In this document: piece after piece, positions 7,763 to 52,274 of the stretch
Position numbering within the stretch: the stretch's first letter is position 1
How the letters are laid out: every line of letters starts with the position of its first letter
Assembly (NCBI GenBank): GCA_963920765.1
Contig: OY987251.1
Span: 6,822,501-6,886,500 of the forward strand
Source of the DNA: Ulota crispa
Lineage: Eukaryota; Streptophyta; Bryopsida; Orthotrichales; Orthotrichaceae
Length of the DNA stretch: 64,000 nt
Direction: 5' to 3'
Translations under genes and position numbers: made by a program
Notes under the pieces: generated by a model
The model's database searches: none
The model's input: the letters and a program-made list of their open reading frames with translations, nothing else
Told to the model about the DNA's origin: nothing

Positions 7763-7838
7763 AACCCTAAGATCCACAAACCCTAATCTCCACGAACCCT
7801 AATCTCCACAAACCCTAATCTCCACAAAACCCTAATCC
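7763..7838. repeat. Short tandem repeat with telomere-like AAACCCTAA core
   Basis: About five units of 16 bp built on AAACCCTAATCTCCAC lie just past the ABCG stop codon, probably in the 3' UTR. AAACCCTAA resembles the plant telomere repeat and the telo-box. The duplicated flank at 7199-7265 has only one unit, so the array expanded after the duplication or was lost from that copy. Confidence 0.6.
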
Positions 7839-8623
7839 CGTTTGTTCCTTCCCAAGACTCTCAGGACAACATAAAAGATACAACGAAAGAAAGTACCAAA
7901 CCCTAAAGTAACCCCCAAGCACGCCCACTTACTCAACTCCTTAATCTCCTTCGCAATCAAAACATCATGCCCAGTAAGAATACACGTCGTCGGGTTCAAG
8001 TCCGCATACACAGAGCTCCGCAGCGCAGGCAACGATCGAATATACACGAGCATATTATCCACAATACTCTCATCCAGATTCGCCAGGGGAGTACCCCGGA
8101 GCATTTCCCGACCGATCTCGTAACAAGCATTGGAGTTGTCGAATTCATTAATAAGCACGGCTTCATACGGGTACTTAATAATGGACAAATAATGGAACCA
8201 GCGCCAGTAAATGGGGATGCGAAGCCTGGAGATGAAGAAACCGCTGAGGAGGAGGAAGTAGGCGAGGATGGCGACGACGACGGTGTATCCGAGCATGACG
8301 TTGGGCATGACGGCGGATAAGAGGGTGACGAACGAGTTCCCCGCCCAGAAGGAGGCCCACACGATGAGGAAGAAGAAGAGGAACCCGGATCCCCCGCCTG
8401 CCAGGCCGACTGACCACCACACCACCAGGCAGAAGGCGATCGAGAGGACTGCGAGGAAAGGGACGTAGATGATGGTGTGCGCGAGGACGTAAGAGGACTT
8501 CCGGTATGCGTTGGTGGCTGTCTCTCTCATGAAGATGTAGCGTTCCTGGAGGAACACCGGCAGCGCGTCCGCGCATGTGTAGAATGTTGTTGACATCGCA
8601 AATGCAAAGAAGCCTAGTCGTTC
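7832..8623 (-). CDS. ABCG: ABCG exon 6 (membrane domain, C-terminus)
   Basis: It encodes residues 580-842. Acceptor TTTGCAG| is followed by [10 protein letters not shown]. Five or so hydrophobic segments follow, including [38 protein letters not shown] and [18 protein letters not shown], then [12 protein letters not shown] and a C-terminal membrane segment ending GRNKRD and TAG at 7832-7834. Confidence 0.95.
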   Translation of the reverse strand, partial: ERLGFFAFAMSTTFYTCADALPVFLQERYIFMRETATNAYRKSSYVLAHTIIYVPFLAVLSIAFCLVVWWSVGLAGGGSGFLFFFLIVWASFWAGNSFVTLLSAVMPNVMLGYTVVVAILAYFLLLSGFFISRLRIPIYWRWFHYLSIIKYPYEAVLINEFDNSNACYEIGREMLRGTPLANLDESIVDNMLVYIRSLPALRSSVYADLNPTTCILTGHDVLIAKEIKELSKWACLGVTLGFGTFFRCIFYVVLRVLGRNKRD

Positions 8624-11600
8624 CTGCAAAAAGGTAAGAAAAAGCGGTGGTGGTTCAGTTAATTGATGTGTCCTGTTGTATCAGTGAAGGCAACAAAAAT
8701 ATCCTTGCAATAAGCAAATTCTACTGTATGTAGAATGTCGTGGACATTGCAAATGTAAAGAAGTCTAATTGTTCCTGTAATGGCAAGGAAAAGTGGTGAT
8801 GGTCAATTTTTATGTCACATTCTTGCTTTTTGTTTTTGTAATGGGTCATGAATGTGGAGGGTAAGGTAGGAGGCTCAAAAACTGCTTGACTGCTAATTAT
8901 GTTTGCAGTTTAGGAATAAGTGACATGTTCCTTCAAATATCTATTATTGTCATCAATGAGTTAGGTAGGCTTAAGTGGTTGGTTTGTGGACCTTCTATCT
9001 TAAGGGCCTCATGCAAGGGCATTCTCAGGTTTAACCCCTGAGCGCCCCAGGACTTCAAAATGGGGTGCTTAGAAATGAAAAAGTTCTTGTTTGACTTGTT
9101 ATAAAATTTCTATTGGTACGGTCAAACCTTTTGTCTTTTTCCTTATACTTTGAAGCTTGTCTCATCTACCATTCAATACGGTTAGATTTTGTGGATAGTG
9201 TTTGTGATGACAATTTGGTTGAATTGAGTGTGAGTGGGTCTAGATTTTGATGAATATGGGCTGGGCGCTCACAGGTTTAGTTATTGGGAACAAGGGCAGA
9301 GTAATCAGTGGCGCAGACATGTGAGATTGCTTGTGTGTGAGGCCTTAGCTTGCATAAATGTTGCTTGAAGAAAAAATTGTCATGTGTCTTTTATGTTGGA
9401 GGGAGTGACATTACGTAGGGTGACACTACTCTGTAATTTTTGTTGTTGCATTAGGGGTAGTCACACCTTCTCCAAGAATGAAACTTTTGTGAAGAATGAG
9501 AAATGGAGGAGTGGAAATAAGAGTCAATGGGAGCATTTCTCCAAGGAGAAGGTGTGACTCTAGCTCCTTTCATGGGATGTGGAGAATGAGTTGACCTCAA
9601 AAAAGGTGATGTGGTAAGAAAGCAAGTTGCATATACACACTCAACTAAGGTTTCTAGCTATAAGGAGGGTGAAAGCAAAAAGAGCAATATGAAAAAGAGA
9701 CACATAGGGGTAAAAACTTCACATGCTAAATCATCTTCATGTCCTTTCTTCTCTTCAAGAGGTGAAGAAAAAAACTTTTCAATCTTCATAGAATGGGGCC
9801 TCCACATTACAAGGAGAGAGTGCCAGGATGCCATTCTTTGAAGATTGAGAATGGGGTGATGACGGTGTAACTACTCCTATTTGCAAGTATAAGGGCAACC
9901 AAACAAGCAAAGAATTTTGTTCAAGGGACAATTTTGTTCAAGCATGTTTATGTAATGGTGTTCCATTTTGCCATGAAGAAAACTCTTTGTGTATAGTCAT
10001 GTGTTTTAACGTCCTAAAGGCATGATTTGGGGTTTTGGGCTCAGATTTCTAGAAAAATAGTGGGTGTTAAGACTAGGACTTGCATGAGAACATTGGCCTT
10101 TGGGCAATACATGTGGTGTTTTGGGTTGTAGGGTTTAAAGTTAAATATTTAGATTTTAAGGTTTAGATTTTTTTTAATAGTGCATGTCAAGGCTAGGATT
10201 TAAAAGAGAACAACGGGCCCTTGGGCAATACACATGGTGTTTTTAGAGAGAAAATTACATATCAACTTTAACACTCATTTTGTAAGTACAATACATGCAA
10301 ACTTGTCACTTTTGTTGGTAGCAAGAAGGTTGGATCTTACATGAGAACATCAAACCTTTGGATAATACACGTGGTGCTTTTAGAAAAATTATTAAAAGAA
10401 CTTTGATGCACAAGTTTTAACTACATATATAAAGTTTCTTTTTTCAATTAGCAAGAGGAAAAAGTGCAACAAAAAGACATTCCAAGCATCTAGAAGATCC
10501 CTAAAGAATTGTCTGTTTTAGCTTTATTTTTTTGGAATTTAGACAATGACATCTTTGATGCTAAGGTTGGTTATCCAAGATTGTAGGCTTATTTTTTTTA
10601 AGAACTCTTGAATCTTCTAATAGAAGTTCCACTCTTGGTGCTATCAAATGTGAAAATGTGTAGAATCTCAAAGAAGAATTTTAAGATGGTTGGTAAACAA
10701 ATACTTTAGATTGTGGTCCATAGGTCATTTTTAAGCATTTAGATCTACCATTGCTCTCCCCAATATGTACCATTAAAATTGGAAACTCGTAATTGTGAAC
10801 TCCCACTTTAATCAATCATATATTGAAAACTAATGTTTTTCACAAAATAAATGTTTTTACTTTGAATTTTGATAATTTGAGATAAAGTTTTGGACACCTA
10901 TATGGTACAAATGTTGTAATACTAACACAAAATTCAATAGTTAAAGGGTGGATGGATAGCAAGTTTTTGCATGCATAATCTTTAACCCCTAAAGGACCAG
11001 ATCCCTTTTTTTAGAAACATAGCAATTTCAGGCAGGTACCTATGATTGGAGCTTTTTACATTTTAGGCTGAAATTTTAAGATAATGTGGGGACAAGGTTC
11101 ATCTTTCATATGCACTAAATTTCATGACATTTGGAATTATGAGTAAAAAGTTATGGCCTAATATGTTGATTTTTACGTTTGGTCGGCAGCCTGGGCAAAT
11201 TTTGAAAAATTGTTTTTTTCAAAAACAAAAATTTAAAATTGGTTGAGGAGATTTACATGAATGTAGGAAGCTTTGAATCATTCCGTCTGGATCAACGAGA
11301 TGAAAGTTATGAAGATTTTTTGTTTGCGGGCAGTTATGGATTCTCTAATCCAAAATAAACTTTGAAGTCCTTTATTTTACTCATTTTTCAACATTTTGGA
11401 AAAAAACAAAACAAAAGGATGAACATTGTTTCTGAAAAAATTATGACCATTGGAATTGGCATTATTCATTTCCATAATTAAATTCTTAACAATTTTGTGT
11501 TTTGAATCATTCTCTACTTCTTTTCCCTTACTAATTTTTTTCCATTTGTTATACAATTCCAAATGATTTGAAACTTTTTTGACATGTACTTTACTTAGGT

Positions 11601-14600: not shown

Positions 14601-17600
14601 AAAAGACCAAATTTCAAACTTTTTTACTCTTTGCCATAAAAGTGGCAGTTTTGAATGTCTTTTGACAAAATAAAGGCCATGGTCCTTTAGGGGTTAAACA
14701 AGTCATTTATTGATTTTGTGAAGGTGTAATTACACTAACCCTGAAGGTAGTGCCTACTTGCCACGGGTAGCATTGGGAACATGACTAAACCTAAATGAAT
14801 TGTAATTGTCCATGACTGACATCAATTTCTGTGAGGCTACATGCTTAGTTGTGTTTGTTTATATCATGCGGCTCACATTGAAATTAGTGCTGTATATTAA
14901 CTTATTGGGACATTAGCTTAGACTAGACAATATCAATTTAGAGAGGTTCTAAGGTAGGAGGCTCATAAACTGATCATCTAAGGGTTAAAACTAAGTTTTG
15001 AGGAGGTGAAACTTCTTGAACTATTTTTCAATAATTTTTCCTTGAAAGACAAAAAGAATTGACATATAACCCAAATTGTTTCATATTTTGTGGAGCTTTG
15101 TGGAATTAATTATAAAATTTTGAAGTGAAAAGGCCATAGGGCTCTAAAACGGTTCACCTCCTCAAATGTACTTTGCTTATACATTTTTAAACTTATGAAA
15201 AACAGCATGTACACATGAAATACATTTGAGAAGGTGAATGGTTTTAGAGCTTGAGAGGAATATGAGCCTCCTACCTTACTATATGCTCAAAATGCTACAT
15301 TCAAAATCCAAACATTTTGACACATCCTAATGGCAAAAAGGAGGGGAAATAAAGGAGGAGGATAAGATAGAAATACCATAAACGGTTAAAATAAGGAAGT
15401 TTAGCTTGAAGATATGGGGAATTTCTTGAGAAATTAAGCTCAATCTGTGGAGAAACAAGGATAACGAAGAGTGCAAAAAAAATTACTCAAGAATGAATAT
15501 TTTATGCAACATAAATGTGGATTTAGGATTTGGACCGATTCTCGTTTCATAAGTGCACCTTACACGGCTACCTTTAGAACCTTGTTCCGAAAAAATTTGA
15601 ACCAATCAAATGCAAGAAAAGAGCATCTTTCTGAAATCTCTTCCAAAACCAGCTCTGGTTGGTTGAAGGACACTCTACTCTACCATTATCGGGCAGTAAC
15701 CGTTTATGATATTTCTACCTTAACCCAGTTTGAAATTCAAAAAGCGGCGGCGATAGGTAAGGTCGCATACCTGCACGCCAAGGGGAGAGTGATCGAGGCG
15801 CCAAAAGATGGTGGCGAGGACGAGGCCCGTGACGGACACCGTAGCCAGGCGCATCCAAAACAACTCCGGAGTGCGCTTGATGTTCTTCCAGGACCGCCGC
15901 ACCAGCACCAAGATCTCCACCCACCACGGATTCGCAAAGGTGCACACCGTCTCCGCGTTCGTCGTGTGCTGTGACACTTGATCCAGCTTCGACTTCCCTG
16001 CCTTTGGCTTCGTCGGCACCGTTAGCTTCTCGTCCGTCGTCGTGACGTCTCCGTTCGCGTCGGGGAACTCGTCCGCCATGGACGCGGCTGCCGGCTTTGA
16101 TTTCAGTTCCCAGACTCGGCAGTATTCCACCAAATGGGCGATCCCTTCCTGTCATGCAAAATTACAACAGTGTTTTTGGAGTTTCAGTTTCCCCATGCTA
16201 GAAGCTTGTTTAGCAAACTCATTGGTCTAGACGAAGAGGACTCTAACGCATGATGGTAACCATTTTTAATTAACACTCATACAACTCACTAGAGAAACTC
16301 AATTAGAAGATATGCATCTAACGAGATTCATATGTATTTTCTAGGCTAATGTTTAGTAAGGAATTTTGAACACTTTCATTATTTGAACATCGTTTAGAAT
16401 TGTTTTGAATCAAACCGATGAGAATTTGAGCACGTAAAACACCATATTAAGTAATCTGGGAAAAAGGGGGTCCCATTTTGTACTTCACCTAAAACCCAAA
16501 AGGTCACCTTAAACCATATTCAAAGCTATTAGATTCAGTTTTAGCCACTAAGATTTTTTCCCTCATGAATTCTTTCTCTCAAGTGAGGACACGTGTACCC
16601 AAAAAAATGTTGGAGTTGGGAACTAGGTGATCACCTAGAACTTTCAAAAGTCCCAAAAAGTACCCTTTTTCCCAAATTACTTAATATGGTGTTGTAACCT
16701 CCAGCCTGATCTTCAAGATTGGCAGGTTCTAAGGTAGGCGGTTCTAAAAGTGTGCAGGCTCTAAAATGGTGCACTTCCTCAATAACTGTGATTATACATG
16801 TTTTTCATAGCCCTTCAACAATGTACAGGAAATATATATTTGAGGAGGTGCACCATTTTAGAGTCTTATGGCCTTTCCACATCAAGTTTTCATAACTAAT
16901 TCCACAAAGCTTCAAAATATAAGAAACAACTTGGGTTAGATGCCAGTTCTTCTTATCTTTCAAGGCAATTTTACTGAAAAAAATATTCCAAGAAGTTTCA
17001 CCTCCCCAAAGTTCAGTTTTCAACCCTTAGATGCTCCATGCATGAGCCTCCAACACCATATTTGTTACTTCAAGAAAAATGGTACATTTTGGGACTTTCA
17101 AATTTTGAGGTGAAAATTTTAGGTGATCACCTAAAACCAAGCTCAACCCTTTTTTTTGTTCACGTGTCCTCACTTGAGAGGAGGAAAAATATCTTAGTAT
17201 CTCAAACTAAATCTGATACCTTTGATTCTGGTTTAAGATAATTTTTGAAGTTTAAGGTGGAGTACAAAGTGGGACACCTGTTTTTCCCAAATTAACGAAT
17301 ATAGTGTTCTCCTACCTTAAACCTTGTAAGTTATTCTTTATTATCGTGTTCTTCAATTGCCATTAGGTAGTCCATTTGAACCGCCTCTTGAAGGTTTGAA
17401 GTTAACAGAACAAACCTCCTAAAATTTCAATTTCCATAGAGCATAGTTTTGGAAAACTTCTTTCCATGTTCATTAGCTTGAGAAATGAATGTGAGATGGG
17501 GGAGAGTGAGAGCTTACTTTGGATGCGTGGAGTTCTTGGATGAGGTCCAGAGCATGTTCGGTGCTGTTCTCGTATTTTGGAACGGGGCGTCCAAATCCTT

Positions 17601-20600
17601 CAAAAAAGAGGTTGAGGTCGGTCGGTGTGCCGCCGTAAACTTTTTGACCAAAGGCCAGGATGATGACGCGGTTGAAGAGGCCCATGATGCGGTAGCTTGG
17701 TTGATGTATAGACAACACAACTAGACTTCCGTTTTGCGCTATTTTTTGGATTGTACGCACCTGAATAAACCACCACAAACAAGGAAAAATTCCATTGTAA
17801 TGTCAATGTTAAAACAAGTTAGCTTGCGGGGGGTTTGGGGACCTTGAAGAACGGATGCTAGAGGAGAAAATGTGATTGAATTTGGGCCACTTCACACTAT
17901 GGCCAACCAAGTCGAGAGACCGTCAAATTGAGTTGCCAAACTTTGTTGAGAGGCCAAGAAGAAAATTTGTTGAAAACATGCAATAAATGTTAAAACATGA
18001 CGGCCTTTCAACCATAGTTTGGGTCTCCATTTTTGCTAAACCCAAACCTCCCTTTGAGAGGTTGACAATTTTGATGATAAAGTGCTGCCACATAGGTAAT
18101 TTGGTGCATGACAGACTTTGGACTTTGACCTCTAGTGTGAAGGATTGAGAGGCCAAACTCTTGGGTTTCTTGCAGTTTGATTGGTAGAAACCAATGGCCT
18201 CTCAACCACTGACCATAATGTGAAGTGGCCCTAAGAACAAACAAAAATGAGGACACCATTGTTCAACAATAAAAGCTTTCATCAGGAAAATAGCATTATA
18301 TGCTCTAAGGGCAAGTTTGATAAATTCTCTAATGCACTACAAATGGACACTATCAATTTGGTCATTTTTTGTTGATTAATAGGACATTTTTTTTGTCAAT
18401 TTAAACGAATGTAATCAATTAATCAATTAGGACGTGTCAATTTGGACATTGTTTCCTTGTAGTGATGGAAAAGGAAGACAACTGACTTACAACCAGGAAA
18501 GCACTAGTAGAATCCAATCCAGATGTAGGTTCGTCTAAGAATAAGATGAGAGGGTCATGGACAATGTCAATGCCGATGGATACTCGGCGCCTTTCACCTC
18601 CTGAAACGCCGCGGTGTCCTTCATCTCCGATGATGGTGTTTGCAACTCTCAGCAGACCCAGTTGCTTCAACAAATTACTCACTCTTGCCACTTTGGCTGA
18701 CTTTGATTGAGACGGCGGTAGCCGAAAGAACGCTGAGTACATGAGTGTTTCTCGAACTGTGAGCATTGGGTAGAGCAGATCGTCCTACAAAAAAAATTCA
18801 AGGCCATTTTAAACTAAGGTAGGTACACCCCTCTCCGTGCGTGTTCCTATCCTCAATACCTACTCGTGGCAATGATGTTGCTTGACAATTTTAAAAAAAA
18901 TGGTTATGGGTGACAAAGCAATGGTTTTGGGTGACTAGCATGGTGGTTTTGGGTGACTAGCATGGTGGTTTTGGGTGACTAGCATGGTGGTTTTGGGTGA
19001 CTAGCATGGTGGTTTTGGGTGACTAGCATGGTGGTTTTGAGTGCCTCATCTTAATATTTAAGAACTCTTCAAGTTAGTATTATGAGTGTATGAGCACACT
19101 AAAAAGTTTAGTAAATGTTGATTTTATCATCTCCTACACACAACTATATTATGAACTTTGAAATTTTTTTGTAAACAAATGCTTGCAATTAGAACTCTCA
19201 AATTGACACCAATATTTTTAATTTCCTCTTCCTTACTTAACACCATTTTTTTTTTACTTAACACCATTTTTTTGAAGTTCATCAACTAGTTTTCCTACTC
19301 CAAAATCCTTAGTTTCACGATTATGGGTGTTCCTATCTTAACTGACAGCCCAGTTTCTTGTAAATTAACCAATGGTTTTAGAAATTGGACCCTCATAATG
19401 TTTAATCTTAGGGTTTAACTGATGGCCCATTTTCTATCAACCATATGTATGCATATGCAAGTCTCTCTCTCTTGATTTCTCTCTTCGATTCTGACTTATA
19501 CATTAAGTGTATTAAATCTTTGCAGGGGGAGAAAGCATTTGAGTGCATCCAAGAGATTAAGCGAAATGCATATAATGACTGCAAGTACTATCCTCTAAGT
19601 TACCTTATTGGAAGAAGAGATGCCATATTTGTGAAGTACTGTTTACCACAATTAACATTATAGTAAAATAAAAGTGCTTAATACGCTCACTCAAGACATG
19701 CCCAATTGACAATTCTTGGCATCGATACTTTTCTATTTTCATACTAATTGCGGACGACAAGACTTTCATGACTATGCCATATTTTCAGGCAGAGATTCAT
19801 TAGGGGTAGTCACACCTTCCCCGAAAATCAAACTTCCGTGAAGAATGAGAACGGGTGGAGTGAAAGTAGGATCGAACCCAAGCAATTCTTTATGAAAGAA
19901 GCTGTAACCCCCTTTTTGTGAGCAATGGAGAACAAAGAATGGAGAATGGTAAAAATGATAGCTCAATTACTAAAAGCAAATAGAGGCACATAAAGGTGCA
20001 CGGTAAGGCTAAAACTTTGCACACAATGTTTTCTCAGCCCAATCCTTCACCCCCAAGGCAGAAGAAAAAAACTTCTCCATCTTTGGAGAATGGACCTCCT
20101 GCCAATTGCGGTTGGTCTGTCATGTAGTCATTCTCATTCTCTCAAGATTGAGAGCATGCTAGAAAAGGTGTGACTAAAGTAGATATACTCAATGTGGAGC
20201 ATGAACCTTATGTAGCAACATGTACACTTTGTGTATAGATTTGATCTCAAATCTAGGCAAGCCATAGATAACTTGTTTTTTGTGTCACAAAAAATAAGCT
20301 ATCTATAGCATGTCTAAACTTGAGATCTAAAATGTACACCTTGTGTACATATGTGCTGCATTAGGTTCATGCTCCGCTATGGGTATGTCTACCTTACCCC
20401 TATTGCATTCACTAGAAAAGGTGGAAGAAGTCTCAGTTGGCTAAGTAAGAAAAGTTTTGAGAGAGAGAGACTTGCATATGTCAAACACTTCTAGTAATGT
20501 AAAAGCAAGCATAATGTGTTATTCATTAATTTGGGAAAACGATGGGTACCATTTTGTACCTCACCTTAATCCAAAATTGCCACCTTAATTCAAATTAAGG

Positions 20601-23600
20601 AGGTCACCTGAAACCTAGTTAATGAACTTCTATCAAAAATCTTAGAAGTTAACAAATTTTCTGTCCAAAAAGAGAGTAATTCTGAATGACGTGTATCTCA
20701 TTTCATTGGAAAACAGCCAATGAATTCTCAATTCAATGAATATGGAGTTCTTTGGAAAAAGAAAAAGAAAGCTAGATATCCCACTTTGTATGCTTATTCC
20801 CAAATTAACCCTTAAATGACCAACCGACCATAGTACACAATATATACGGTGTTGTATAATTGACATTTGTTACCCACAAAAAGTTTTCATTTGGGATCTT
20901 GACTAGCTCTCTAGAACCGCATTGATCTATTTTCTAACTTCTTTGATGACCTCAAATATAGTTAAAGTGTGGATGCATTCCAAATACAAAAAAAATATAT
21001 CGTATTGTGTACTGTGTACTGTGGTCGGTTGGTCGTTCAAGGGTTAACAAATAACGCGTTGCATGCTATAGCTTGGGATGGTACTGTACCTGCATGACGT
21101 AAGCCGAAATGTTCCGAAGTAGGCGCTCCCCGAACTGGTTACCATTCAACGTCATACTGCCTTTCACAGACCCAATTCGTTGAGCGAGTGCATCGATGAG
21201 CGTGGACTTGCCGGAGCCGCTCGGCCCCATGATGGCCAGAATCTCGCCGTCTCTCGCCTCTCCCGAAATCCCGTCCAACACGCGCAACGGCTTCGGCGGT
21301 GGCCGCTTGAGGCTGGGCAGCATCGCCCCCACGAACCGCTGCCACCGCGACTGCGTGTTGCACACGGTGTACGTGAGACCACTGAACTGCAGGTACAGAT
21401 TCTTCTGCAGGGGTGGCATAGTCGTAGAAGAATCGTCACATTCGGAGACGGAGTTCCCCTTCTTCACGTGGATGATTTTGTGGATGGTTTTATTGTGATC
21501 TTCTTGCTCCTCCGGTTGTTGTTGTGGAGGCTGTTGTTCGCTGCAACTTGAATAAATAAAGCATCCACCACCGTTCTTCCCTACAAAAGCATGCCAACGC
21601 CATATTTGTTAATTTGGGAAGAAACGCTCATTTTGGGAATAAATTGGGTTTAAGGTGATCACCTTAAACCAAGCTCTAAGTTTTGGCAGCATTTTTTTGG
21701 GTATACGTGCCTTCACTTGAGAGGAGGAATTAGCGAGGGACAAAATCTCAATGGCTTATACCGAATCTGATACATTTGAATTTGGCATTTAAACGGTTTA
21801 ACCAAAGGAGAAACTTTGGGTTTAAGGGGAAGTACAACTTGGGAATCTGGTTTTTTCATTTTAATGAATATGGCGTTATGCAAGGATTCCTGGTTTTAGC
21901 CCCACCCAAGCTAAAAAGAAACAATTTAAAGGCCCTTTGAAAGCTAAAGGGAATTGAGTTGTAGCAACACCCCCTCTCTGTGAGTGTCCACATTGGTGTT
22001 GCATAGCAATGAGATTTTGTGTCAATGACTGATAGATACAAAAAAAAAGTTGGTTACAGGTGACAAATTGATGGTTTTGTGTGATTGGCCTGAGTGACTA
22101 TTTTTGAGCACCCATCCCACTATTTATGAACTTCAATCAAGTTGATATTATGAGCATATGAGCACACCAAAGAACGCATTATTCATTAAAATGGAAAAAG
22201 GTGACATTTTGGGGCTCTTGGATTTTATGTTTTTTGAAGAGTATTCAATGAAAACTCTTCAAAGAATGTAAAGTTCAAAAGTCCCAAAATGTCAATTTTT
22301 CCCATTTTAATAGATAATGTGTTTAAAGACTTTAGTAAGCATTAACACCATATTTGTTAAACTGGGAAAAAAAAGTGGTCCCACTTTGTACTTCACCTTG
22401 ATCCAAAATAGTCACCTCAAGTTAGATTTGAAGGTATCAGATTCAGTCTAAGCCACTAAGATTTTTTCCCTCGCAAATTCCTCCTCTCAGGTGCAGGCAT
22501 GTGTACCAAAAAAAACGCTGCTAGCTTGGTTGTACATGATCATGTACAACTTGTAGTAGTCCCAAAATGTATCCTTTTTCCCAATTTAACAAATATGGTG
22601 TTCATTGTTTTTAGCATCTCCTACACACAACTATACATTTTCAATGATTTTGGATTTTGAAAAAAATCTTTGTGAACAAATGCTTGCAATTGGAACTTTG
22701 AAATTGATGCCAATATTTTGTTGGTTTCCTCTTCCTAATTTGACAACTTTTGACAGTGTGCTCATAACTTGTCCATCTAAGGGCTGAAATTGAATTTTGG
22801 GGAGAACATGTTATTTGTTAAATTGGGAAAAACGTAGGTACCATTTTGTATTTCACCTGAAATCCAAAAAGTTACTTTAAACCAGATTCAAAGGTATCAA
22901 ATTCAGTCTGAACCACTAAGATTTTTTCCCTCACAAATTCCTCCTCTTAGGTGAGGGCACGTGTACCAAAAAAAACGCTGTGAGCTGGAATTCAGGTGAT
23001 CACCTGAATTCTTGAAAGTCCCAAAATGTACTGTTTTTCCCAATTTAACGAATAATGCGTTGGAGGTGAAACCTCTTGAACTATTTCTTAGTAAATTTTC
23101 CTTGAAAGATAAGAAAAGTTGACATCTAACCCAAGTTGTTTCATATTTTTTTGGAGCCTTGTGGAATTAGTTATGAAATTTTGAAGTGGAAAGGCCTTAG
23201 GTCTCTAAAACCGCCCACCTCCTCAAATGTACATCACCTGTACATTGTTGAAAGGCTATGAAAAACAGCATGTACTAGCAGAGTACATTTGGTGAGGTGT
23301 GCGGTTTCAGAACCTGAGCGTAATATGATCAGACTACCTTACTTACTCCAAAATTCAATCCTTAGTTTCACGCTTATGGGTGTTGTTGCTACCAGCCTAA
23401 GGTAGCAACATCCATAATTGTCAAACTAAGGGTTTTGAACTTGATGATTACTAATAAACATCGAGCAAACTATAGGATCTTATTAGCAAGAGAAAAAGAA
23501 TGAGTTTGCACTTTTCAATGTATTATTTGGATACTATGAGAATAACTTGTGAATTTTTAAAGAGCCAAGTGCAATTGCACCTCATACCAACACTAAGATT

Positions 23601-24549
23601 TCATGTTCACATGTTATATATCCAGGAATTGATATGCATACCACACCTTTTTGACTATCCCACCACACCCCGGGTAATTTTTAGATTTCTACCATCAAAA
23701 AGCTGAATTTGAGAATTTGGAATTCAAATTTGGACTTAGAGACCATGATTTTGTCTAGAATCACACAAAAAAATTCTAATTAAACAACACCCAATGAAAA
23801 ATCGTATCTTTTTATAAACAAAAGTAAAAGTAAGACTTTTCCCCCAAGCTAAGCTTTTTCATTGGGTGTTGTTCAATTACAACCTTTTTATATAGTTCTA
23901 AACAAAATCCAGCCATCTAGGTCTCTAAGTCCAAATCTAAATTCTAGATCCTCAAATTCAGGTTTTTGATGGTAGAAATCTAAAATTTACCCTGAGGTGT
24001 GGTGGGATAGTCAAGAAGGTGTAATATGCATATCAATTCCCTATATATCCTTGTAATTACATCTATTCACTTCTACAGATTTTAGAGGTGATGGTTATGG
24101 ATACAGTGATGGTTATGGGTGTTGTTGCTACCAGCTTATGGCAATTCTCAAAACATGAGAGTGACGCAATTTGGACCGTTTCAAAAGGGAACTCAAGGTA
24201 GCGAAGCGGATGTATTACCCGAAGAGCCTGCTAGTAGTCCGCCCGGTTCCGGAGATCGCAAGAGCGACCGCGACGACCCCTCGAAATCAGTCAAGCAGGC
24301 AAATCTCGAGTCTGTTGGGGTGGTACTCATCGTCGGGTGCAGCGGCGACTGAAGGATGGACCCGCCATAGTTCATCCTCATCACCAAATTAGAGCCGGAG
24401 GAGCCCACCCTCTCGACGTCGTCCCCCTCAGACTGGTAATGCTCCGCCCCTTGTGAAAATGTTCTGTACTTTTTATTCTCTTGCATCAGCAGCAGCTCTT
24501 CTTTCCTGAGCGGATTTCGTTGCTTTCTCGCCGGTTCCGCCATTGGCAT
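7832..24549 (-). CDS. ABCG: ABCG half-size transporter (WBC type), complete six-exon gene
   Basis: The exons on the minus strand are 24549-24219, 21580-21090, 18784-18491, 17760-17518, 16148-15771 and 8623-7832. All introns are GT-AG, and the spliced coding length is 2529 bp (842 residues plus stop), in frame throughout. Domain order is an unusual N-terminal extension (1-170), nucleotide-binding domain (Walker [10 protein letters not shown] near 229-237, signature VSGGERRR 334-341, Walker B ILFLDE 354-359, H-loop His391), then the ABC2 membrane domain. Blocks such as [22 protein letters not shown] IIGDEGHRG and [21 protein letters not shown] place it with Arabidopsis ABCG1/2/6/16/20, which act at the plasma membrane in suberin and pollen-wall barriers. 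The exact substrate is an inference. Confidence 0.93.
9035..9275. mobile_element. TTAA-type MITE in ABCG intron 5
   Basis: Left end TTAA (9031-9034) then CCCCTGAGCGCCCC; right end GGGCGCTCACAGG then TTTA, a one-base change from TTAA. It is inserted in repeat family Q (roughly 8990-9960). The other Q copy (27305-28020) carries a different TTAA element at the equivalent position. Confidence 0.65.
9454..9877. mobile_element. TA-flanked MITE, family R copy 2
   Basis: The ends GGGGTAGTCACACC and GGTGTAACTACTCC are inverted and flanked by TA. It is homologous to 19803-20400. It is inserted in family Q. Confidence 0.65.
10065..10385. repeat. Three degenerate direct repeats in ABCG intron 5
   Basis: Three blocks of about 60 bp (10065-10125, 10185-10243, 10320-10385) share the order GCATGAGAACAT, TTTGGGCAATAC and TGGTGTTTT with scattered changes. 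No other structure was recognised. Confidence 0.45.
10986..11905. mobile_element. TTAA-flanked element F1, 920 bp
   Basis: TTAA at both ends, terminal CCCCTAAAGGACC and its inverse. The interior is homologous to 35810-36742, 44357-45224 and the inner part of 52420-53562, for example the block around GTAGAGAATCCAT. A minus-strand frame at 11377-11817 is open for 146 codons (Lys/Asn-rich) with no recognised domain, so coding is unproven. Confidence 0.8.
12633..13015. mobile_element. TTAA-type element, family K copy 1
   Basis: TTAA followed by CCCTTAATTGAC on the left; right end GTTTGAGAA followed by TTAA. It is similar to about 36880-37500 and 46208-46558. It holds the uninterrupted GTGTTAAGCC site that is split by an insertion at 37098-37327. 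Confidence 0.6.
13496..13619. mobile_element. Foldback MITE H1 with 9-bp target duplication
   Basis: The 124-bp element is an almost complete hairpin (GGGAATTGATATATGTACC against GGTACATATACCAATTCT). It is flanked on both sides by the 9-bp CAATTTTAT (13487-13495 and 13620-13628). A 9-bp duplication is typical of Mutator-like elements. Confidence 0.85.
13775..14693. mobile_element. TTAA-flanked element F2, 919 bp
   Basis: Exact TTAA at 13771-13774 and 14694-14697; ends CCCCTAAAGGACCAT and ATGGTCCTTTAGGGG. It shares subterminal blocks with F1 (the GGGATTTTGGGCAAGTACCT region) but has a partly different interior. Confidence 0.85.
14952..15276. mobile_element. TA-flanked MITE, family C copy 1
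   Basis: Ends AGGTAGGAGGCTCATAA and TATGAGCCTCCTACCT, flanked by TA on both sides. Other copies are at 16732-17317, about 22752-23339, 26018-26344, 48511-48802 and 59876-60194. Confidence 0.88.
15771..16148 (-). CDS. ABCG: ABCG exon 5 (linker and first membrane segment)
   Basis: It encodes residues 454-579. [14 protein letters not shown] follows the nucleotide-binding domain. After a variable linker come [19 protein letters not shown] and a hydrophobic segment ([14 protein letters not shown]). The exon ends SPLGVQ at donor CAG|GTATGC, the family's usual junction before ERLGFFAF. Confidence 0.95.
16438..16693. mobile_element. Family D MITE, copy 1, 4-bp duplication GTAA
   Basis: Ends AACACCATATTAAGTAAT and ATTACTTAATATGGTGTT are perfectly inverted. 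GTAA flanks both sides (16434-16437 and 16694-16697). Length 256 bp, in ABCG intron 4. Confidence 0.88.
16732..17317. mobile_element. Family C MITE, copy 2, interrupted by a family D element
   Basis: It starts AGGTAGGCGG after TA, and ends CTCCTACCT before TA at 17318-17319. Its right terminus is split by the D element at 17052-17308. Removing that element and one CTCC restores the usual GAGCCTCCTACCT end. Confidence 0.88.
17052..17308. mobile_element. Family D MITE, copy 2, 4-bp duplication CTCC
   Basis: Ends AACACCATATTTGTTA and TAACGAATATAGTGTT; CTCC at 17048-17051 and 17309-17312. It is nested inside family C copy 2, so it is younger than that copy. Confidence 0.9.
17518..17760 (-). CDS. 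ABCG: ABCG exon 4 (H-loop)
   Basis: It encodes residues 373-453: [21 protein letters not shown] (H-loop), [17 protein letters not shown] and [12 protein letters not shown]. The acceptor is TTCAG|GTGCGT and the donor is AAA|GTAAGC. Confidence 0.95.
17884..18231. mobile_element. Tourist/Harbinger-like MITE, family G copy 1
   Basis: Ends GGGCCACTTCACACTATGG and CCATAATGTGAAGTGGCCC are inverted. TAA follows on the right but the left flank is TTT, so the target duplication is not preserved. It is in ABCG intron 3 and homologous to 39363-39912. Confidence 0.7.
18335..18464. mobile_element. CACTA-ended MITE, 3-bp duplication ATG
   Basis: Ends CACTACAAATGGACA and CCTTGTAGTG; ATG at 18332-18334 and 18465-18467. 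Length 130 bp. Its inner ends carry inverted CAATTTGG motifs. It lies 20 bp inside the donor of ABCG exon 3. Confidence 0.85.
18491..18784 (-). CDS. ABCG: ABCG exon 3 (signature and Walker B)
   Basis: It encodes residues 275-372, from [15 protein letters not shown] through [12 protein letters not shown] and [12 protein letters not shown] to AFLV. The acceptor is TTGTAG| and the donor is GTT|GTAAGT. The phases are 0/0. Confidence 0.95.
18817..19338 (-). mobile_element. TA-flanked MITE, family A copy 3
   Basis: Ends AGGTAGGTACACCCC and GGGTGTTCCTATCT with TA on both sides. It contains five tandem 22-bp units (CATGGTGGTTTTGGGTGAC) from 18939. It begins 32 bp outside the acceptor side of ABCG exon 3. 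Confidence 0.85.
19803..20400. mobile_element. TA-flanked MITE, family R copy 1, with nested S element
   Basis: Left end GGGGTAGTCACACC after TA. The right end GGTGTGAC...TACCCC is split by a second element at 20177-20394. It is in ABCG intron 2. Confidence 0.75.
20177..20394. mobile_element. Foldback TA-flanked MITE S nested in family R
   Basis: A 218-bp near-complete hairpin (GGAGCATGAACC against GGTTCATGCTCC; TACACTTTGTGTA against TACACCTTGTGTAC). Its ends AAGTAGATATAC and GTATGTCTACCT are flanked by TA, interrupting the right terminus of the R element. Confidence 0.8.
20513..21060. mobile_element. Family D MITE, copy 3, 4-bp duplication GCAT, with nested TTAA element
   Basis: Ends AATGTGTTATTCATTAA and TTAACAAATAACGCGTT; GCAT at 20509-20512 and 21061-21064. 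A TTAA element occupies 20809-21043 near its right end. It ends 30 bp from the donor of ABCG exon 2. Confidence 0.85.
20809..21043. mobile_element. TTAA-flanked MITE E, 235 bp, nested in family D
   Basis: Exact TTAA at 20805-20808 and 21044-21047. Long inverted ends: CCCTTAAATGACCAACCGAC with ACCATAGTACACAATA inside, against TATTGTGTACTGTGTACTG and GGTCGGTTGGTCGTTCAAGGG. Confidence 0.88.
21090..21580 (-). CDS. ABCG: ABCG exon 2 (Walker A)
   Basis: It encodes residues 111-274. It begins after TTTTGTAG| with GKNGGG, passes a Gln/Pro-rich stretch (126-136), [12 protein letters not shown] and the Walker A block, and ends ISAYVMQ at donor CAG|GTACAG. MITEs begin 14 bp outside the acceptor side and end 30 bp outside the donor side. 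Confidence 0.93.
21595..21877. mobile_element. Family D MITE, copy 4, duplication ATGC
   Basis: Ends CAACGCCATATTTGTTAA and TTAATGAATATGGCGTT; ATGC at 21591-21594 and 21878-21881. Its edge lies only 14 bp outside ABCG exon 2 on the acceptor side, so the branch-point region of intron 1 is probably inside the MITE. Confidence 0.8.
22173..22323. mobile_element. Family D MITE, copy 5, short form
   Basis: Ends AACGCATTATTCATTAA and TTAATAGATAATGTGTT. AAAG precedes it, and TAAAG follows, so the 4-bp duplication is offset by one base. The 151-bp element has a foldback centre (AAGAGTATTC against its inverse). Confidence 0.7.
22344..22602. mobile_element. Family D MITE, copy 6, 4-bp duplication CATT
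   Basis: Ends AACACCATATTTGTTAA and TTAACAAATATGGTGTT; CATT at 22340-22343 and 22603-22606. Length 259 bp. Confidence 0.9.
22752..23339. mobile_element. Family C MITE, copy 3, carrying a family D element
   Basis: The left end is decayed (GTGCTCATAAC remains); the right end AGACTACCT is followed by TA. The interior matches other C copies on both sides of the D element at 22805-23061. Confidence 0.7.
22805..23061. mobile_element. Family D MITE, copy 7, 4-bp duplication GGAG
   Basis: Ends AACATGTTATTTGTTAA and TTAACGAATAATGCGTT; GGAG at 22801-22804 and 23062-23065. Without it the family C sequence reads through as TTTTGGGGAGGTGAAAC. Length 257 bp. Confidence 0.9.
23400..24132. mobile_element. 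Family B TA-type MITE, copy 2, carrying a foldback
   Basis: Left end AGGTAGCAACATCC after TA; right end GGGTGTTGTTGCTACC. The body matches 30469-30782 (for example GTATTATTTGGATA and TTTCATGTTCACATGTT) and is interrupted at 23624-24040. Confidence 0.75.
23624..24040. mobile_element. Foldback element H2, 417 bp, 9-bp duplication TATATATCC
   Basis: The two arms pair over nearly their full length (GGAATTGATATGCAT...; inner arms CACCCAATGAAAAA against TTTTTCATTGGGTG). TATATATCC at 23615-23623 and 24041-24049. Related elements are at 41069-41435 and 54173-54549. Confidence 0.88.
24219..24549 (-). CDS. ABCG: ABCG exon 1 (N-terminal extension)
   Basis: It encodes residues 1-110 plus one base. The start is ATG at 24547-24549; an in-frame TGA lies four codons upstream, so the frame cannot extend further. 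The second Met, two codons in, is an alternative. The donor is TCGG|GTAATA, and the split Gly codon joins exon 2 in frame. The segment is hydrophilic (many Arg, Ser, Glu) with no recognised domain. Confidence 0.82.
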
Positions 24550-40367: not shown

Positions 40368-41068
40368 TAGGCCCAGCCACTTTTGAGAGCCAAGAAAGGA
40401 AGCGTGTGACTGCTCCGTCCACTAATAAACCATCCTCATTACTCGGACCATCCCTCCAGTCTCTTCGCCATTGGCTTGTCAAATAGCCTCCCTTGACATG
40501 CCCACCTGACCAGGACCATCTCCAAGTACGGCACCCACAGGGATGCACGCCTCCCAAGCAGCGTTTAATTTTGGGTTTCTCCCTGGTAGAGCGACACGCA
40601 CCCCACCATGCCAGCAGGTAAGGAAAATTTGAATAGAGTTGGACAGAATCAATAACATATGTACATTCATCCAAGAAATCTACTAATATTAGCAGCTTTC
40701 ATTCAAAAAATGACAAATCTGGTGCAAATGTGTGAGGAATTTGGTGAATTCGTCCATTTTTTCCACGAATTTTTCTAGTGTTACGGTAGCCATTCAGATC
40801 TTGAGGTAAAGTTTAGGCAAATTTTTGCCAAAAAATTAAACACTGCTCCCAAGTCCCAACCATGCACCTCCATATTTGCACTTGGTTTGTCAAGTTGTGC
40901 CACAGCAGACGCAAAAACCTAAAACAGAAAAAAAAAGCAATAAACAAAACTCGAAAGCAAACAAATATTTTATGGGTTGGTAATTTGGTATGCTGCTCAA
41001 ATCTAATTGTAGGACTGGTGGAGAAGCTTCAAACTTTCACCTAGCACAAAACAGTAGAATTTTAAAAT
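40368..41068. other. GC-richer unique-looking intergenic DNA
   Basis: 40370-40620 is noticeably more GC-rich than its surroundings and leaves a 111-codon minus-strand frame. The translation resembles nothing I know and no splice signals frame it. I would not call a gene. Confidence 0.35.
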
Positions 41069-41435
41069 AGGAATTGATATTAGCACACCCGGGGTTTGTT
41101 ATGTGTACACCGGGAGGGGGTTAATTTTAGATATTTATCATCAAGTTGAATTTGGAAATTTTGAATTCAGATTTGGATACAGAGATCTTGATTTAGTTTA
41201 GAATTGTGAAGGAGAATATAATTGAACAAAGTCCCATGAAAAAGCTTAGTTTTCTTTACAAATAAGGGTAAAAGTAGTTATTTGCCCCTTAGTTAAGCTT
41301 TTCCACTGGGCTTTGTTCAATTGTATTCTCCTTTGTGGTTCTAGACTAAATCAAGATCTCTATATCCAAATCTGAATTCAAAAATTTCCAAACTCAACTT
41401 TTATCCCCCCCTTGTACTATGCATATATCATACCC
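41069..41435. mobile_element. Foldback element, family H copy 3
   Basis: Left arm AGGAATTGATATTAGCACACC; inner arms GAATATAATTGAACAAAG against CTTTGTTCAATTGTATTC. The right end is eroded and no target duplication is visible. Confidence 0.65.
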
Positions 41436-49057: not shown

Positions 49058-51069
49058 CTGCGCAGTGTCGCAAGGACAAAACGTCAGGCGTGGTATGTGT
49101 CTTCCGTTGCAAATTGCAGCAAAATTGGGAAAAAAAGGCTTCGCCATAGCCATTTCACCGACCTGGCGCAGGTCCTGGTCTGTCCGTCGTCTTCACCGTC
49201 CTGTACATCTGCATTCCATCCCCAAACACTTGCTCAAAACCCAAAACTCTCGCCAAGCACTAAGCTCAAAACACTAGAAGAAAATGTGCAATAAACAACT
49301 GGTCCTATACGACTGCAAATGTCCGCACCTAAACAACTGTAATTGAGTCGTTGTGTAGTTGTTTAGGACATTTGCACTTGTTCTGAAAGAAGACAAATTT
49401 AGGACACAAGCTCAAAACACTAGAAGAAAATGCGCAATGGTCCTAAAGTACTGCATTGAGTCATTGTATAGTTGTTTAGGACATTTGCAGTTGTTGTGAA
49501 AGAAGGATCGTTTAGGATACTTCTTTCTTCTAGTACAAAAAAGAAAGGCCAAAAAAACGGTGTGGAAAGTAAGACAGAGGATTCATAGCAAGGGGTTTTA
49601 CCTGCAAGTGGCTTTTGACGTGCGCCAAGGTGAGGTCTTTGACGTTCATGAGCTCCAGGACGGATTTTGGAGTGGCGCCTGTGTTTTTTCACATCCAGCA
49701 AACAGGGGGTTATGGTAATGATCGATGTGAAGTGCGAATTTTGGAACCCCATATTAGGTAGATATGGAGCCTCATTTAGAATCAGCTTCAATCAACTTAC
49801 TCATGGGAGGGAAACAAATTTAGGAGTTAATTGTGTACCAAAATGATGAGAAGCTTAGGGTATTTTCACACTTAGGTCTTAAGAGGGGTAGTAGCAAAGG
49901 AGGAAAATTAGATGCATTTGGACACATTTAGACTACAATCATAATGCTAATACCCCTCCCAACACCAAGTGTGAACATACCCTTAATATGACAAGAGCCT
50001 ATTGTAGTATTATGGAAGATTAAAAAGGTTAACGGCACGTTACACCAGCCATCTTGAAAAAAAACATGGTAGTTAACACTCCTCACAAATAGTTGCATAA
50101 CTCCATATCCCATTTTGGGTTCCTGAAAAAACAGGGCATGACGGAAATGGAGAGGTGGAGGGATTTTTGTTTGGACTTACGGTCATGGCCGCCGAGGAGT
50201 TCCACGGCTTGGACGAAGTGCGCGTGCAAAGCGCTGGTCCATCGCATTCGGGGAGCGCGCATGGAGCGCTTGGACGGCGACCGGGGCGGGAAGCGCGCGC
50301 GGAAGCCGACGACGTTACCACCGTCGTGTCGGAAGCCGTCGTAGCTGTTTGCTCCGGTGGATCCGTGCAATGGCGCCAGGTTGCCAGCAAAAGAGGACCT
50401 CTGGTGATCGCCGGGATAGCGATGAGGCTCCGAGCTGGAAAAAGAGTAGCAGGACAGTTTCGGAAGCTCGCCGAAGGATAAAAGCTCCTGATGAACCGCG
50501 CCACGAGGAGCTGGTTCTGTCAGTCGTCCAAGGGAGAGCTCCGGAATGGCAGAAGAGAGCGAGCTGCTGCGGTGAAGATGCTGCTGATGCTGATGCTGAT
50601 GCTGTTGCTGATGTGGATTCTGATGTTGATGGTGATGATGGTGATGCATTCCGTTGTGAGGACGGGCAAAGTCGGTGAGCTTGGGCTCCAGCAAGAACTG
50701 GTGCGAGGCGACGCCGTTGCGGAAGTAGTCGCCGTCGTAGTTGTCGTGGTTGTCGTTAATGCGAGGTGGTCGTGGCGGATTTGCCAAGCACAAAACGGTA
50801 GACGCGCCCACATTGTAGTCAGAGCACTCGCCGTCCGTGCTGGACTTGGTGGGCTGCTGCTGTTTCCAGAGATCGAAGCCGTGAACATGCTCGGGCAACT
50901 GCAGACGTGGCGACGGCGACGACTGACGTGGCGACGGCGCGGGTCGGAGGGTCGTGTCGCCGACGATGCTGCTGTTGGGTGGGCTGATGTGAAGCGCCAA
51001 ATCAGGGCCAATGGAGTGCGTGGTGGAGCTTGACGCACTCATGGATTGGTCGGCGCTAAAGTCTTGCAT
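48786..51069 (-). CDS. KAN: KANADI-type GARP transcription factor, four exons
   Basis: The exons are 51069-50181, 49678-49602, 49208-49163 and 49057-48786, 1284 bp spliced (427 residues plus stop). KANADI proteins bind DNA through a GARP domain and mostly repress, setting abaxial and peripheral identity in land plants. Residues 267-331 carry KRSMRAPRMRWTSALHAHF, VQAVELLGGHDR, ATPKSVLELMNVKDLTLAH and VKSHLQMYRTVKTTDR, diagnostic of KANADI. An EAR-like DLALHI followed by SPPN is at 23-32, a His/Gln tract at 141-167, and a second EAR-type LDLEL at 373-377. The first in-frame ATG is 51067-51069. The 3' end is uncertain because it runs into a MITE. Confidence 0.93.
49163..49208 (-). CDS. KAN: KANADI exon 3 (46 bp)
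   Basis: Acceptor AATGCAG| then MYRTVKTTDRPGPAP. Donor CCAG|GTCGGT; the frame stops two codons later without splicing. The intron to exon 4 is 105 bp. Confidence 0.85.
49272..49535. mobile_element. CACTA-ended MITE pair in KANADI intron 2
   Basis: Two left ends (CACTAGAAGAAAATG at 49272 and 49418) and related interiors (GTTGTTTAGGACATTTGCA twice) lie in tandem, with one right end CTTTCTTCTAGTA at 49535. The preceding CTCAAAA is duplicated too, so this is likely a partial tandem duplication. No clean target duplication. Confidence 0.7.
49602..49678 (-). CDS. KAN: KANADI exon 2 (77 bp, GARP core)
   Basis: Acceptor ACACAG| joins the Arg codon, then ATPKSVLELMNVKDLTLAH and VKSHLQ. Donor CAG|GTAAAA. 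Too short to stand out as an open frame; found by family match and splice phase. Confidence 0.95.
50181..51069 (-). CDS. KAN: KANADI exon 1
   Basis: It encodes residues 1-296 plus one base: EAR-like motif, Ser/Pro-rich region, His/Gln tract (CAC, CAT, CAG codons), a second LSLGR motif and the first half of the GARP domain. Donor GACC|GTAAGT splits the Arg codon of GGHDR. Confidence 0.93.
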
Positions 51070-52274
51070 TGTAAGCTCGGAAATGCGCCACACCAACAGA
51101 TTCTCAGATCCACCTACTACTAGTAAATTCGTGAGAGAATTCAACCATACGACGGCGGTGGCGACGGCACCATTCGCAAGCTACCAGGATAGCAGAGGCG
51201 TCGTCTCAAATAGCATGCACCACCACCGCCGCACTCCATTCTCCGAATTCCACCGCCGAAACTGAAGAACTCATACACACGTCCCCTCAAAATAGATCCG
51301 CAGTCCGAGATTCGACCTGCAATTGGCTACAAAATGCGCCACGGTACTCGAATCGGCAAACACCCCTCCCCACGATTTCAGGCTCCCGGAATGCGAGAAA
51401 TGCGGGGTGCGGAATGGCGAACGCAATCCAGCAATGGCAACGGTAAGCGACCTGGCGTCGTCGATAAAACCTAGTAACCTGAAGAGAAAGAGCACAGCCG
51501 AGTGATTGGTGACTCGACGTTGGAGAAAACCTAGTAAATGGTGGTGGTGATGGTGGTGGTGATGGTGGTGGTGGTGATGGAGATGGCGGTACTGGCGCCG
51601 CAACAGCAGCAGCAGCAGCAGCAACAGCGATGGATGTTACGACCACCCGAAGCGAGCGCCATGCGCGTCGAATCGGAGCGACCGGAACATGCCACAGCGC
51701 ATGGAGCCCTGGCGGCAGCCGAGTTGCAAGGCCCAAGTGAGGGACGACAGCAACTCCGGGGGAAACGAGATCGTGTGCATCCGTGCCCGCCCCTCCTCAC
51801 CCTCCGTTTCGCTCACTTCTTCTTCTCCTTCGTTCCGCTTTGCATCGGCCCTGTGCTCCCGTGCTCCTCAACCTCCTTTCTCCTCACCTCCCGCAAACCC
51901 CACCACCACAGCTCGCACTCCCGAAGCGCTCATAACGAAGTGAAGGTTTGCAAAGCAGCAGCAAAAGGGGTGCTTGAAGGCAAGCCACCCAAGCCTTTGT
52001 GAGCAAGCGAGAGGAGCAAAAGTGAAGGCTTTGCAGGAGGTGCGCGGCACGGGAAGAAAATTCCCGTTTTGCTTGGGAAAACGGAAGAGCTTTCCGGAGC
52101 GAGGCTGCCAAAAATGGCGGATTTAGAAAGTGATGGCGTGTTGAGAGATAACAAGCAGGCGACGGCGACGACGACGATCGTCTCTCTCGCTCGAGGGGGG
52201 GGGATTTCATCTGGCTGTGGATGGATGACGACTGTCGGTTCTGTTCGTTCGTTTGTTTCCCTTTACTCGACTCG
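51070..52274 (-). promoter_or_regulatory. GC-rich leader and presumed promoter of KANADI
   Basis: GC content rises sharply from about 50.1 to 52.28 kb and drops at the J repeat. Above the ATG it holds a GGTGAT/GGTGGT run (51537-51590) and a CAGCAG run (51600-51634). On the gene strand these read as CTG and CAC/ATC runs. Upstream short frames could be uORFs. The transcription start is not determinable by eye. Confidence 0.5.
51537..51634. repeat. Trinucleotide microsatellites in the KANADI leader
   Basis: A GGT/GAT tract followed about 10 bp later by seven consecutive CAG units flanked by CAA. Confidence 0.9.

What the first reader, a model, noticed from the sequence alone, without database searches (positions are those of the whole stretch)
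16434..23065. A MITE family with 4-bp target duplications of no fixed sequence
Five clean copies give five different 4-bp duplications: GTAA, CTCC, GCAT, CATT and GGAG; a sixth (ATGC at 21591/21878) fits with one base of asymmetry. Ends are AACACCATATT or AACGCGTTATT. A variable 4-bp duplication does not match the common plant superfamilies (TA, TAA/TTA, 3, 8, 9 bp). Sola-type elements make 4-bp duplications but are not the usual source of plant MITEs.
Basis: partly seen in the sequence, partly recalled or inferred. Interest (0 to 1): 0.75.

Follow-up and report, generated by a model that had tools for sequence, protein, structure and literature searches.

The report
Moss-like MITEs with 4-bp target duplications
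Thousands of short jumping-DNA copies in a plant (probably moss) genome duplicate exactly four bases of almost any sequence when they insert, which fits none of the five transposon groups that usually supply plant MITEs; the enzyme that moves them was not found.

Summary
The five exact duplications (GTAA, CTCC, GCAT, CATT, GGAG) are where stated; ATGC and a seventh, unlisted copy (22173-22323, AAAG) fit with one extra base. Of 78 end-pairs found by their ends alone, 49 have an exact 4-bp duplication (1.2 expected by shuffling), 15 more have one mismatch, and no other length stands out. The 49 comprise 40 tetramers. For 7 of 27 copies tested, uninterrupted host-repeat copies span the insertion point. 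A weak symmetrical preference, G at -2 and C at -1, flanks the duplication. The exact 11-base end is about 28 times commoner than its reversed control.

Best reading: MITEs moved in trans by a DDE/D transposase with a 4-nt stagger, outside the five usual plant superfamilies. No autonomous partner was found: 100 fetched single-end sites and the long-range pairs checked gave MITEs, truncated copies or MITEs carrying other insertions, with one site unresolved. Sola (4-bp duplications, recorded in Physcomitrella) is the leading named candidate but untested; a Kolobok-like or undescribed transposase remains open.

The parts
16438..16693 (.). MITE copy, 256 bp, 4-bp duplication GTAA (16434-16437 and 16694-16697); lies between coding frames of an ABCG-type gene, so probably in an intron
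   Evidence: ends 27 of 28 identical; 86% to the 257-bp consensus; coding frames
17052..17308 (.). MITE copy, 257 bp, duplication CTCC (17048-17051 and 17309-17312)
   Evidence: ends 22 of 28 identical; one partial, gapped empty-site match (L069)
20513..21060 (.). MITE copy, 548 bp including a nested TTAA-flanked element, duplication GCAT (20509-20512 and 21061-21064)
   Evidence: ends 16 of 28 identical, the nested insertion interrupts the right end
20805..21047 (.). nested second-family element with TTAA on both sides, ends CCCTTAAATGACCAACCGACC / GGTCGGTTGGTCGTTCAAGGG
21596..21877 (.). MITE copy, 282 bp, AACGCC ends, duplication ATGC with one extra C on the left
   Evidence: ends 20 of 28 identical
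22173..22323 (.).
   Evidence: ends 23 of 28 identical
22344..22602 (.). MITE copy, 259 bp, duplication CATT (22340-22343 and 22603-22606)
   Evidence: ends 27 of 28 identical
22805..23061 (.). MITE copy, 257 bp, duplication GGAG (22801-22804 and 23062-23065)
   Evidence: ends 24 of 28 identical; uninterrupted host-repeat copies at window 60185-60081, 14961-15065, L080, L020

Best explanation
These are miniature inverted-repeat transposable elements: short DNA with ~28-bp (to ~70-bp) inverted ends, too short to encode a transposase, in several subfamilies (about 120, 150, 208-231, 256-260 and 277 bp) that share the outermost AACRC..TATT..TTGGGAAAA. Shown: the ends, the 4-bp duplication of no fixed sequence, its consistency across the sampled genome, and insertion into previously uninterrupted repeats. 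Inferred: a DDE/D transposase encoded elsewhere (or now lost) binds the shared ends, excises the element, and joins it to target DNA cut with a 4-nt stagger, with a weak symmetrical preference for GC-NNNN-GC. The transposase is not of the five superfamilies that supply most plant MITEs (TA, 3-bp, 8-bp, 9-bp makers). Its identity is unresolved; Sola is the leading named candidate (about 0.3).
For: 49 of 78 end-pairs with an exact 4-bp duplication against 1.2 by shuffling, 64 of 78 with at most one mismatch, other lengths at or near chance; set chosen by one 27-base end 21 of 36 against 0.64 (these sites overlap the 78). Empty sites: 7 of 27 joined-flank queries have a host-repeat match spanning the junction. 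Exact 11-base ends 3,451+3,399 against 124+121 for the reversed pattern; 27-base end 142+123 against 0+0; AACGCSWTATT 1,366+1,310 against 113+103. Preference outside the duplication: G at -2 in 37 of 98 half-sites (p 1.4e-5), C at -1 in 39 of 98 (p 1.8e-6), against an assumed 19% background. A 156-bp copy (L023 3166-3321) is an almost perfect hairpin (z -22.8). Twenty copies of the 120-bp subfamily are 87.5-98.3% identical to their consensus.
Against: 29 of 78 end-pairs lack an exact duplication (15 with one mismatch, 4 with two, 8 with three, 2 with four), which I put down to age or wrong pairing. One copy has 5 bp (L023 3166 = L130). In the set rich in 277-bp copies only 6 of 20 sites were credibly exact (a seventh flagged row, L119, is a false pairing). 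In the AACGCGTTATT set 5 of 12 paired sites were exact. 20 of 27 joined-flank queries had no junction-spanning match in the DNA held, and some of the matches found have gaps near the junction. No autonomous element or transposase was linked to these ends, so the transposase part is inference. The target preference was noticed in the same 49 sites on which it was tested.
Confidence: 0.9

Rival explanations
1. The MITEs are non-autonomous Sola (Sola1/Sola2-type) elements. Sola transposases make 4-bp duplications and are recorded in the moss Physcomitrella.
For: 4-bp duplications. Sola makes 4-bp duplications, has very variable ends and is found in Physcomitrella (PMC10741241 passages; PMC9033089 table passage). 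Host probably a moss (contig sizes; inference).
Against: No Sola transposase could be searched: no Pfam model known to me and no seed sequence held. The founding Sola paper was not held, so ends and target preference could not be compared.
Confidence: 0.3
2. The MITEs are moved by a Kolobok- or piggyBac-lineage transposase that kept the 4-nt stagger but lost TTAA specificity.
For: KolobokP makes 3-4 or 4-5 bp duplications without strong target preference and has 5'-RR..YY-3' ends (PMC9587614 passages); AA..TT fits RR..YY. piggyBac-type transposase domains are abundant in this genome (PF13843, 120 matches).
Against: Only 2 of 49 duplications are TTAA. The one apparent piggyBac end seen here (right side of L126) is CCCTTCATTGCC next to TTAA, not AACRCC. 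In the 4 of 120 piggyBac loci fetched (1.5 kb of flank each) only loose two-mismatch AACRCC-like matches lie on both sides of a domain (L128, L129), and their flanking bases do not match. PF20700 gave no match, but its controls gave none either. KolobokP is reported from animals.
Confidence: 0.15
3. The MITEs belong to an undescribed transposase superfamily or deep lineage with 4-nt stagger, AAC..GTT ends and GC-N4-GC preference.
For: No family considered met all its testable features; a text search found no paper with a word beginning AACACCATATT or AACGCGTTATT (it would miss the motif inside a longer printed string).
Against: Rests on one text search and three answered transposase-family searches; no transposase in hand.
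Confidence: 0.25
4. Atypical members of a common plant superfamily (MULE, hAT, PIF/Harbinger, CACTA, Tc1/mariner).
For: MULE domains are present (PF10551, 54 matches).
Against: 2-, 3-, 8-, 9- and 10-bp duplications are at or near chance; ends are not CACTA and there is no TA target.
Confidence: 0.03
5. Not a transposon: dispersed fold-back repeats whose flanks match by chance.
For: None.
Against: 49 of 78 against 1.2 and uninterrupted empty sites.
Confidence: 0.01

Closest known systems
Plant MITEs (Tourist, Stowaway, hAT-, Mutator- and CACTA-type)
   Same: short, AT-rich, inverted ends, high copy number, duplication of the target
   Different: duplication is 4 bp of no fixed sequence instead of TA, TAA/TTA, 3, 8 or 9-10 bp
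Sola DNA transposons
   Same: 4-bp duplications; recorded in Physcomitrella (PMC10741241, PMC9033089; passages)
   Different: no transposase seen here; ends not compared; Sola elements are reported as mostly 2-9 kb
KolobokP (Kolobok superfamily)
   Same: duplications around 4 bp without strong target preference; RR..YY ends (PMC9587614; passages and section 5)
   Different: no long terminal direct repeats noticed; reported from animals; 4 bp is sharp here, not 3-4 or 4-5
piggyBac
   Same: 4-bp duplication; transposase domains abundant in the same genome
   Different: target here is not TTAA and ends do not begin with CCC
Ginger
   Same: 4-6 bp duplications include 4 (PMC10741241)
   Different: Ginger ends are TG..CA; here AAC..GTT

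Membership tests
MITE | short element with terminal inverted repeats of at least 10 bp | tested here: met
   lengths 116-383 bp; window ends up to 27 of 28 identical
MITE | target-site duplication at both ends | tested here: met
   49 of 78 exact, 64 of 78 within one mismatch
MITE | high copy number | tested here: met
   6,850 exact 11-base ends against 245 control
MITE | moved by a transposase of a related autonomous element | tested here: inconclusive
   no autonomous partner found
Sola | 4-bp duplication | tested here: met
Sola | Sola DDD transposase | not testable with these tools
   no model known to me and no seed sequence
Kolobok | TTAA-specific duplication (classical lineages) | tested here: not met
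   2 of 49 are TTAA
Kolobok | 5'-RR and YY-3' termini | tested here: met
   AA..TT
Kolobok | Kolobok transposase | tested here: inconclusive
   PF20700, chosen from recall as possibly related, gave 0 matches and no control rang
piggyBac | TTAA target | tested here: not met
   2 of 49
Ginger | TG..CA termini | tested here: not met
   AAC..GTT
PIF/Harbinger or CACTA | 3-bp duplication | tested here: not met
   3 of 78 against 2.1 expected
Tc1/mariner | 2-bp TA duplication | tested here: not met
   2-bp matches 6 of 78 against 6.7 expected
hAT | 8-bp duplication | tested here: not met
   0 of 78
Mutator/MULE | 7-12 bp duplication | tested here: not met
   0 of 78 at 7, 8, 9 and 10 bp; 11 and 12 bp not in this test

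The most novel reading that the evidence does not exclude
A high-copy plant MITE group is moved by an undescribed transposase superfamily or deep lineage that cuts with a 4-nt stagger at almost any tetramer, with a palindromic GC-NNNN-GC preference, and recognises AACRC ends.
Probability: 0.22. Interest if true: 0.72.

Novelty: new variant of a known kind. Interest (0 to 1): 0.5.

Why it matters
A recent survey sorts plant MITEs primarily into five superfamilies by duplication and ends (PMC12550479, passages); a review lists seven for angiosperms, adding Novosib, P and piggyBac (PMC10004981, passages). A group of the order of ten thousand copies (my rough estimate) whose 4-bp duplication fits none of the five would be put into a wrong class or dropped, and points to a transposase lineage that standard annotation does not look for. 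Because the transposase fixes the duplication length, the sharp 4 bp is a direct, testable signature for finding that enzyme.

Tried and rejected
Autonomous partner. (1) C2:21650036-21653408, two 27-base ends 3.4 kb apart: separate MITEs with other DNA between them. (2) Long-range convergent pairs at C5:7233789/7237156, C2:8126137/8135780 and five pairs on C1: flanks do not match (C2 pair; compared by eye). (3) Forty places with the 27-base end AACACCATATTCATTAAATTGGGAAAA (of 100 listed, 265 in all): 36 of 39 (L077 dropped as a duplicate of L076) pair with an end within 383 bp; L076 lacks the right end, L083 has a weak one (8 of 11) at 142 bp, L084 carries another insertion. (4) Twenty places with TTGGGAAAACCAGATTCCCAAGTTGTACTTCACCT (of 50 exact ones listed; 177 in all with up to one mismatch): all MITE-like by eye; L107, L115 and L119 seem to carry an insertion at TTAA that hides the right end, L109 and L123 lack the outer left end. 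(5) Forty of 66 unpaired AACGCGTTATT ends (86 in all): 12 pair within the 205 bases fetched, though two of those pairings (L139, L168) are weak; these two and the 28 others were compared by BLAST, and 29 of 30 have an interior shared with other loci in hand (L162 and L168 over 107-111 bases, the rest over 151-187); L142 shares only 42 bases and was not resolved. (6) C1 pairs 1.25 kb and 0.6 kb apart: MITEs with TTAA-flanked insertions, duplications TACC/GACC and AAAG/AAAA; three longer C1 pairs do not match.

Transposase families: PF10551 gave 54 matches and PF13843 120, neither linked to these ends (the MULE loci were not fetched); PF20700 gave none, controls none. PF00665, PF13359, PF02992 and PF00115 did not complete, so nothing is known of them here.

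Literature: ten searches used. In the listings, abstract beginnings and passages I saw there was no plant MITE with a variable 4-bp duplication; I did not read whole papers. Passages seen of PMC10741241, PMC10004981, PMC12550479, PMC9033089, PMC12477816, PMC4054914; passages and section 5 of PMC9587614. GingerRoot (PMC6839031) and the Sola paper (PMC2727372) are not held; what I know of them is recalled and was not used as a test.
Full report
Host and setting. The window is C10:6822501-6886500 of an unnamed 274.8-Mb assembly of 157 contigs. The eleven largest contigs seen are 6.3-41.4 Mb (C1 and C2, C3-C11), and C156 is 104,638 bases. That size is typical of moss mitochondrial genomes (recalled), so I infer a moss with n = 11; no search confirmed this. 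A gene with ABC-transporter and ABC2-membrane domains (ABCG type) lies on the minus strand, with coding frames at 21066-21608, 18437-18784, 15720-16151 and 7832-8680. Three of the seven MITEs (16438, 17052, 20513) lie between these frames, probably in introns.

The observation. The 20513-21060 copy holds a second element flanked by TTAA.

Genome-wide test. AACACCATATT occurs 3,451+3,399 times against 124+121 for the reversed pattern. Twenty 10-kb regions were fetched because one search listed ends there, mostly pairs; 40 further sites were chosen by one exact 27-base end on C1 and C2, 20 by an inner-end pattern and 40 by an AACGCGTTATT end. The duplication was never used to choose. A script pairing ends 80-400 bp apart across this DNA and the window found 78 pairs: 49 exact at 4 bp (1.2 by shuffling), 15 with one mismatch, 14 with two or more; matches at 2, 3 and 6-10 bp are at or near chance and 5 bp has one against 0.2. 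Two pairs are double-counted right ends, and duplicate or short loci were left out first. In the set chosen by one 27-base end, 36 of 39 sites had a partner end and 21 of 36 an exact 4-bp duplication, against 0.64. In the AACGCGTTATT set 12 of 40 had a partner within the 205 bases fetched; 5 of 12 were exact and 3 had one mismatch. In the set rich in 277-bp copies 6 of 20 were credibly exact. The 49 exact duplications comprise 40 different tetramers.

Empty sites. Joined flanks of 27 elements, with one copy of the duplication, were compared with the DNA in hand; 7 had a match spanning the junction (L004 1501, L013 4752, L026 4862, L028 4512, window 17052, 22344 and 22805). For 22805-23061 (GGAG) several host-repeat copies align straight through, e.g. 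window 60185-60081 (84%), 14961-15065 (82%) and L080 182-286 (82%). Some other alignments have gaps near the junction. This shows insertion and duplication independently of the ends.

Target. Pooling both sides of the 49 sites, G stands at -2 in 37 of 98 and C at -1 in 39 of 98 half-sites (assumed background 19%; p 1.4e-5 and 1.8e-6); both together in 14 of 98. This is weak, and discovery and test used the same sites.

Anatomy. Subfamilies of about 120, 150, 208-231, 256-260 and 277 bp share the outer ~28 bases but differ inside. Twenty 120-bp copies are 87.5-98.3% identical to their consensus, so some are fairly young. A 156-bp copy is a near-perfect hairpin. Exact 11-base ends of the two pattern groups total about 9,000 above control. 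If, as, about 16 of 36 unselected ends keep the exact 11 bases, there are of the order of ten thousand copies (rough inference).

Autonomous partner. Not found. The 100 single-end sites and the long-range pairs checked are MITEs, truncated MITEs, or MITEs enlarged by other insertions, several of them TTAA-flanked. One site (L142) has an interior not shared with others beyond 42 bases and was not followed. For the end types sampled, an autonomous copy is therefore rare (a few per cent of ends at most), has different ends, or is lost.

Superfamily. A variable 4-bp duplication excludes Tc1/mariner, PIF/Harbinger, CACTA, hAT and MULE as normally defined. Ginger is excluded by TG..CA ends (PMC10741241). 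Classical Kolobok and piggyBac are excluded by TTAA, but KolobokP shows that a TTAA-making superfamily can hold a lineage without strong target preference (3-4 or 4-5 bp; PMC9587614). Sola makes 4-bp duplications and is recorded in Physcomitrella (PMC10741241, PMC9033089). No tool here could test a Sola transposase. I therefore give the MITE-with-4-nt-stagger reading 0.9 and leave the superfamily open.

Novelty. A text search found no paper with a word beginning AACACCATATT or AACGCGTTATT; its nine listed papers hold AATATGGTGTT or AACACCATA and are unrelated by title. The phrase searches for 4-bp duplications with transposons or MITEs gave no plant MITE case in what I saw. Repbase and most subscription journals were not searched.

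Noticed in passing
window 20805-21047; L029 about 2736-2974; L017, L025, L028, L107, L172, L173: A second group of TTAA-flanked elements (ends CCCTTAAATGACCAACCGACC or CCCCTAAAGGACC-like), several of them inserted into TTAA sites of the 4-bp MITEs, including the TTAA in their inverted ends.
   Followed up: partly
G000 genome; L126-L129, L022 1005-2494: piggyBac-type transposase domains (PF13843) are abundant in this plant genome: 528 first-look candidates, 116 scored, 120 matches above cut-off, most with stop codons. The right side of L126 shows CCCTTCATTGCC next to TTAA, resembling the TTAA elements.
   Followed up: partly
window 23664-24001, 41064-41402, 54166-54544; L129 41-446: A roughly 400-bp repeat that matches L129 on both strands (a long palindromic repeat family), also in L009, L010, L011, L017, L028.
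   Followed up: no
window 23517 and 30586; L004, L009, L010: Another dispersed repeat beginning like AATGTATTATTTGGATACTRTGAGAATAA; no partner end was sought.
   Followed up: no
window 18900-19068: 22-bp tandem repeat (TGGTTTTGGGTGACTAGCATGG) between coding frames of the ABCG-type gene; a related single unit lies near 22043.
   Followed up: no
window 57336-58808: Long low-complexity tandem repeat giving open frames in several frames on both strands (ILPPPFL / IKKGGGS repeats).
   Followed up: no
window 50083-51180, minus strand: Open frame containing KRSMRAPRMRWTSALHAHFVQAVELLGGHDR, which I recognise from recall as a KANADI/GARP-type domain; Pfam gave no match for the whole frame at E 0.001.
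   Followed up: partly
L076 and L077 (C2:2671574 and 2673472); L121 and L122 (C3:2732374 and 3656680): Pairs of MITE sites with the same flanks, i.e. duplicated segments; one of each pair was dropped from the counts.
   Followed up: no
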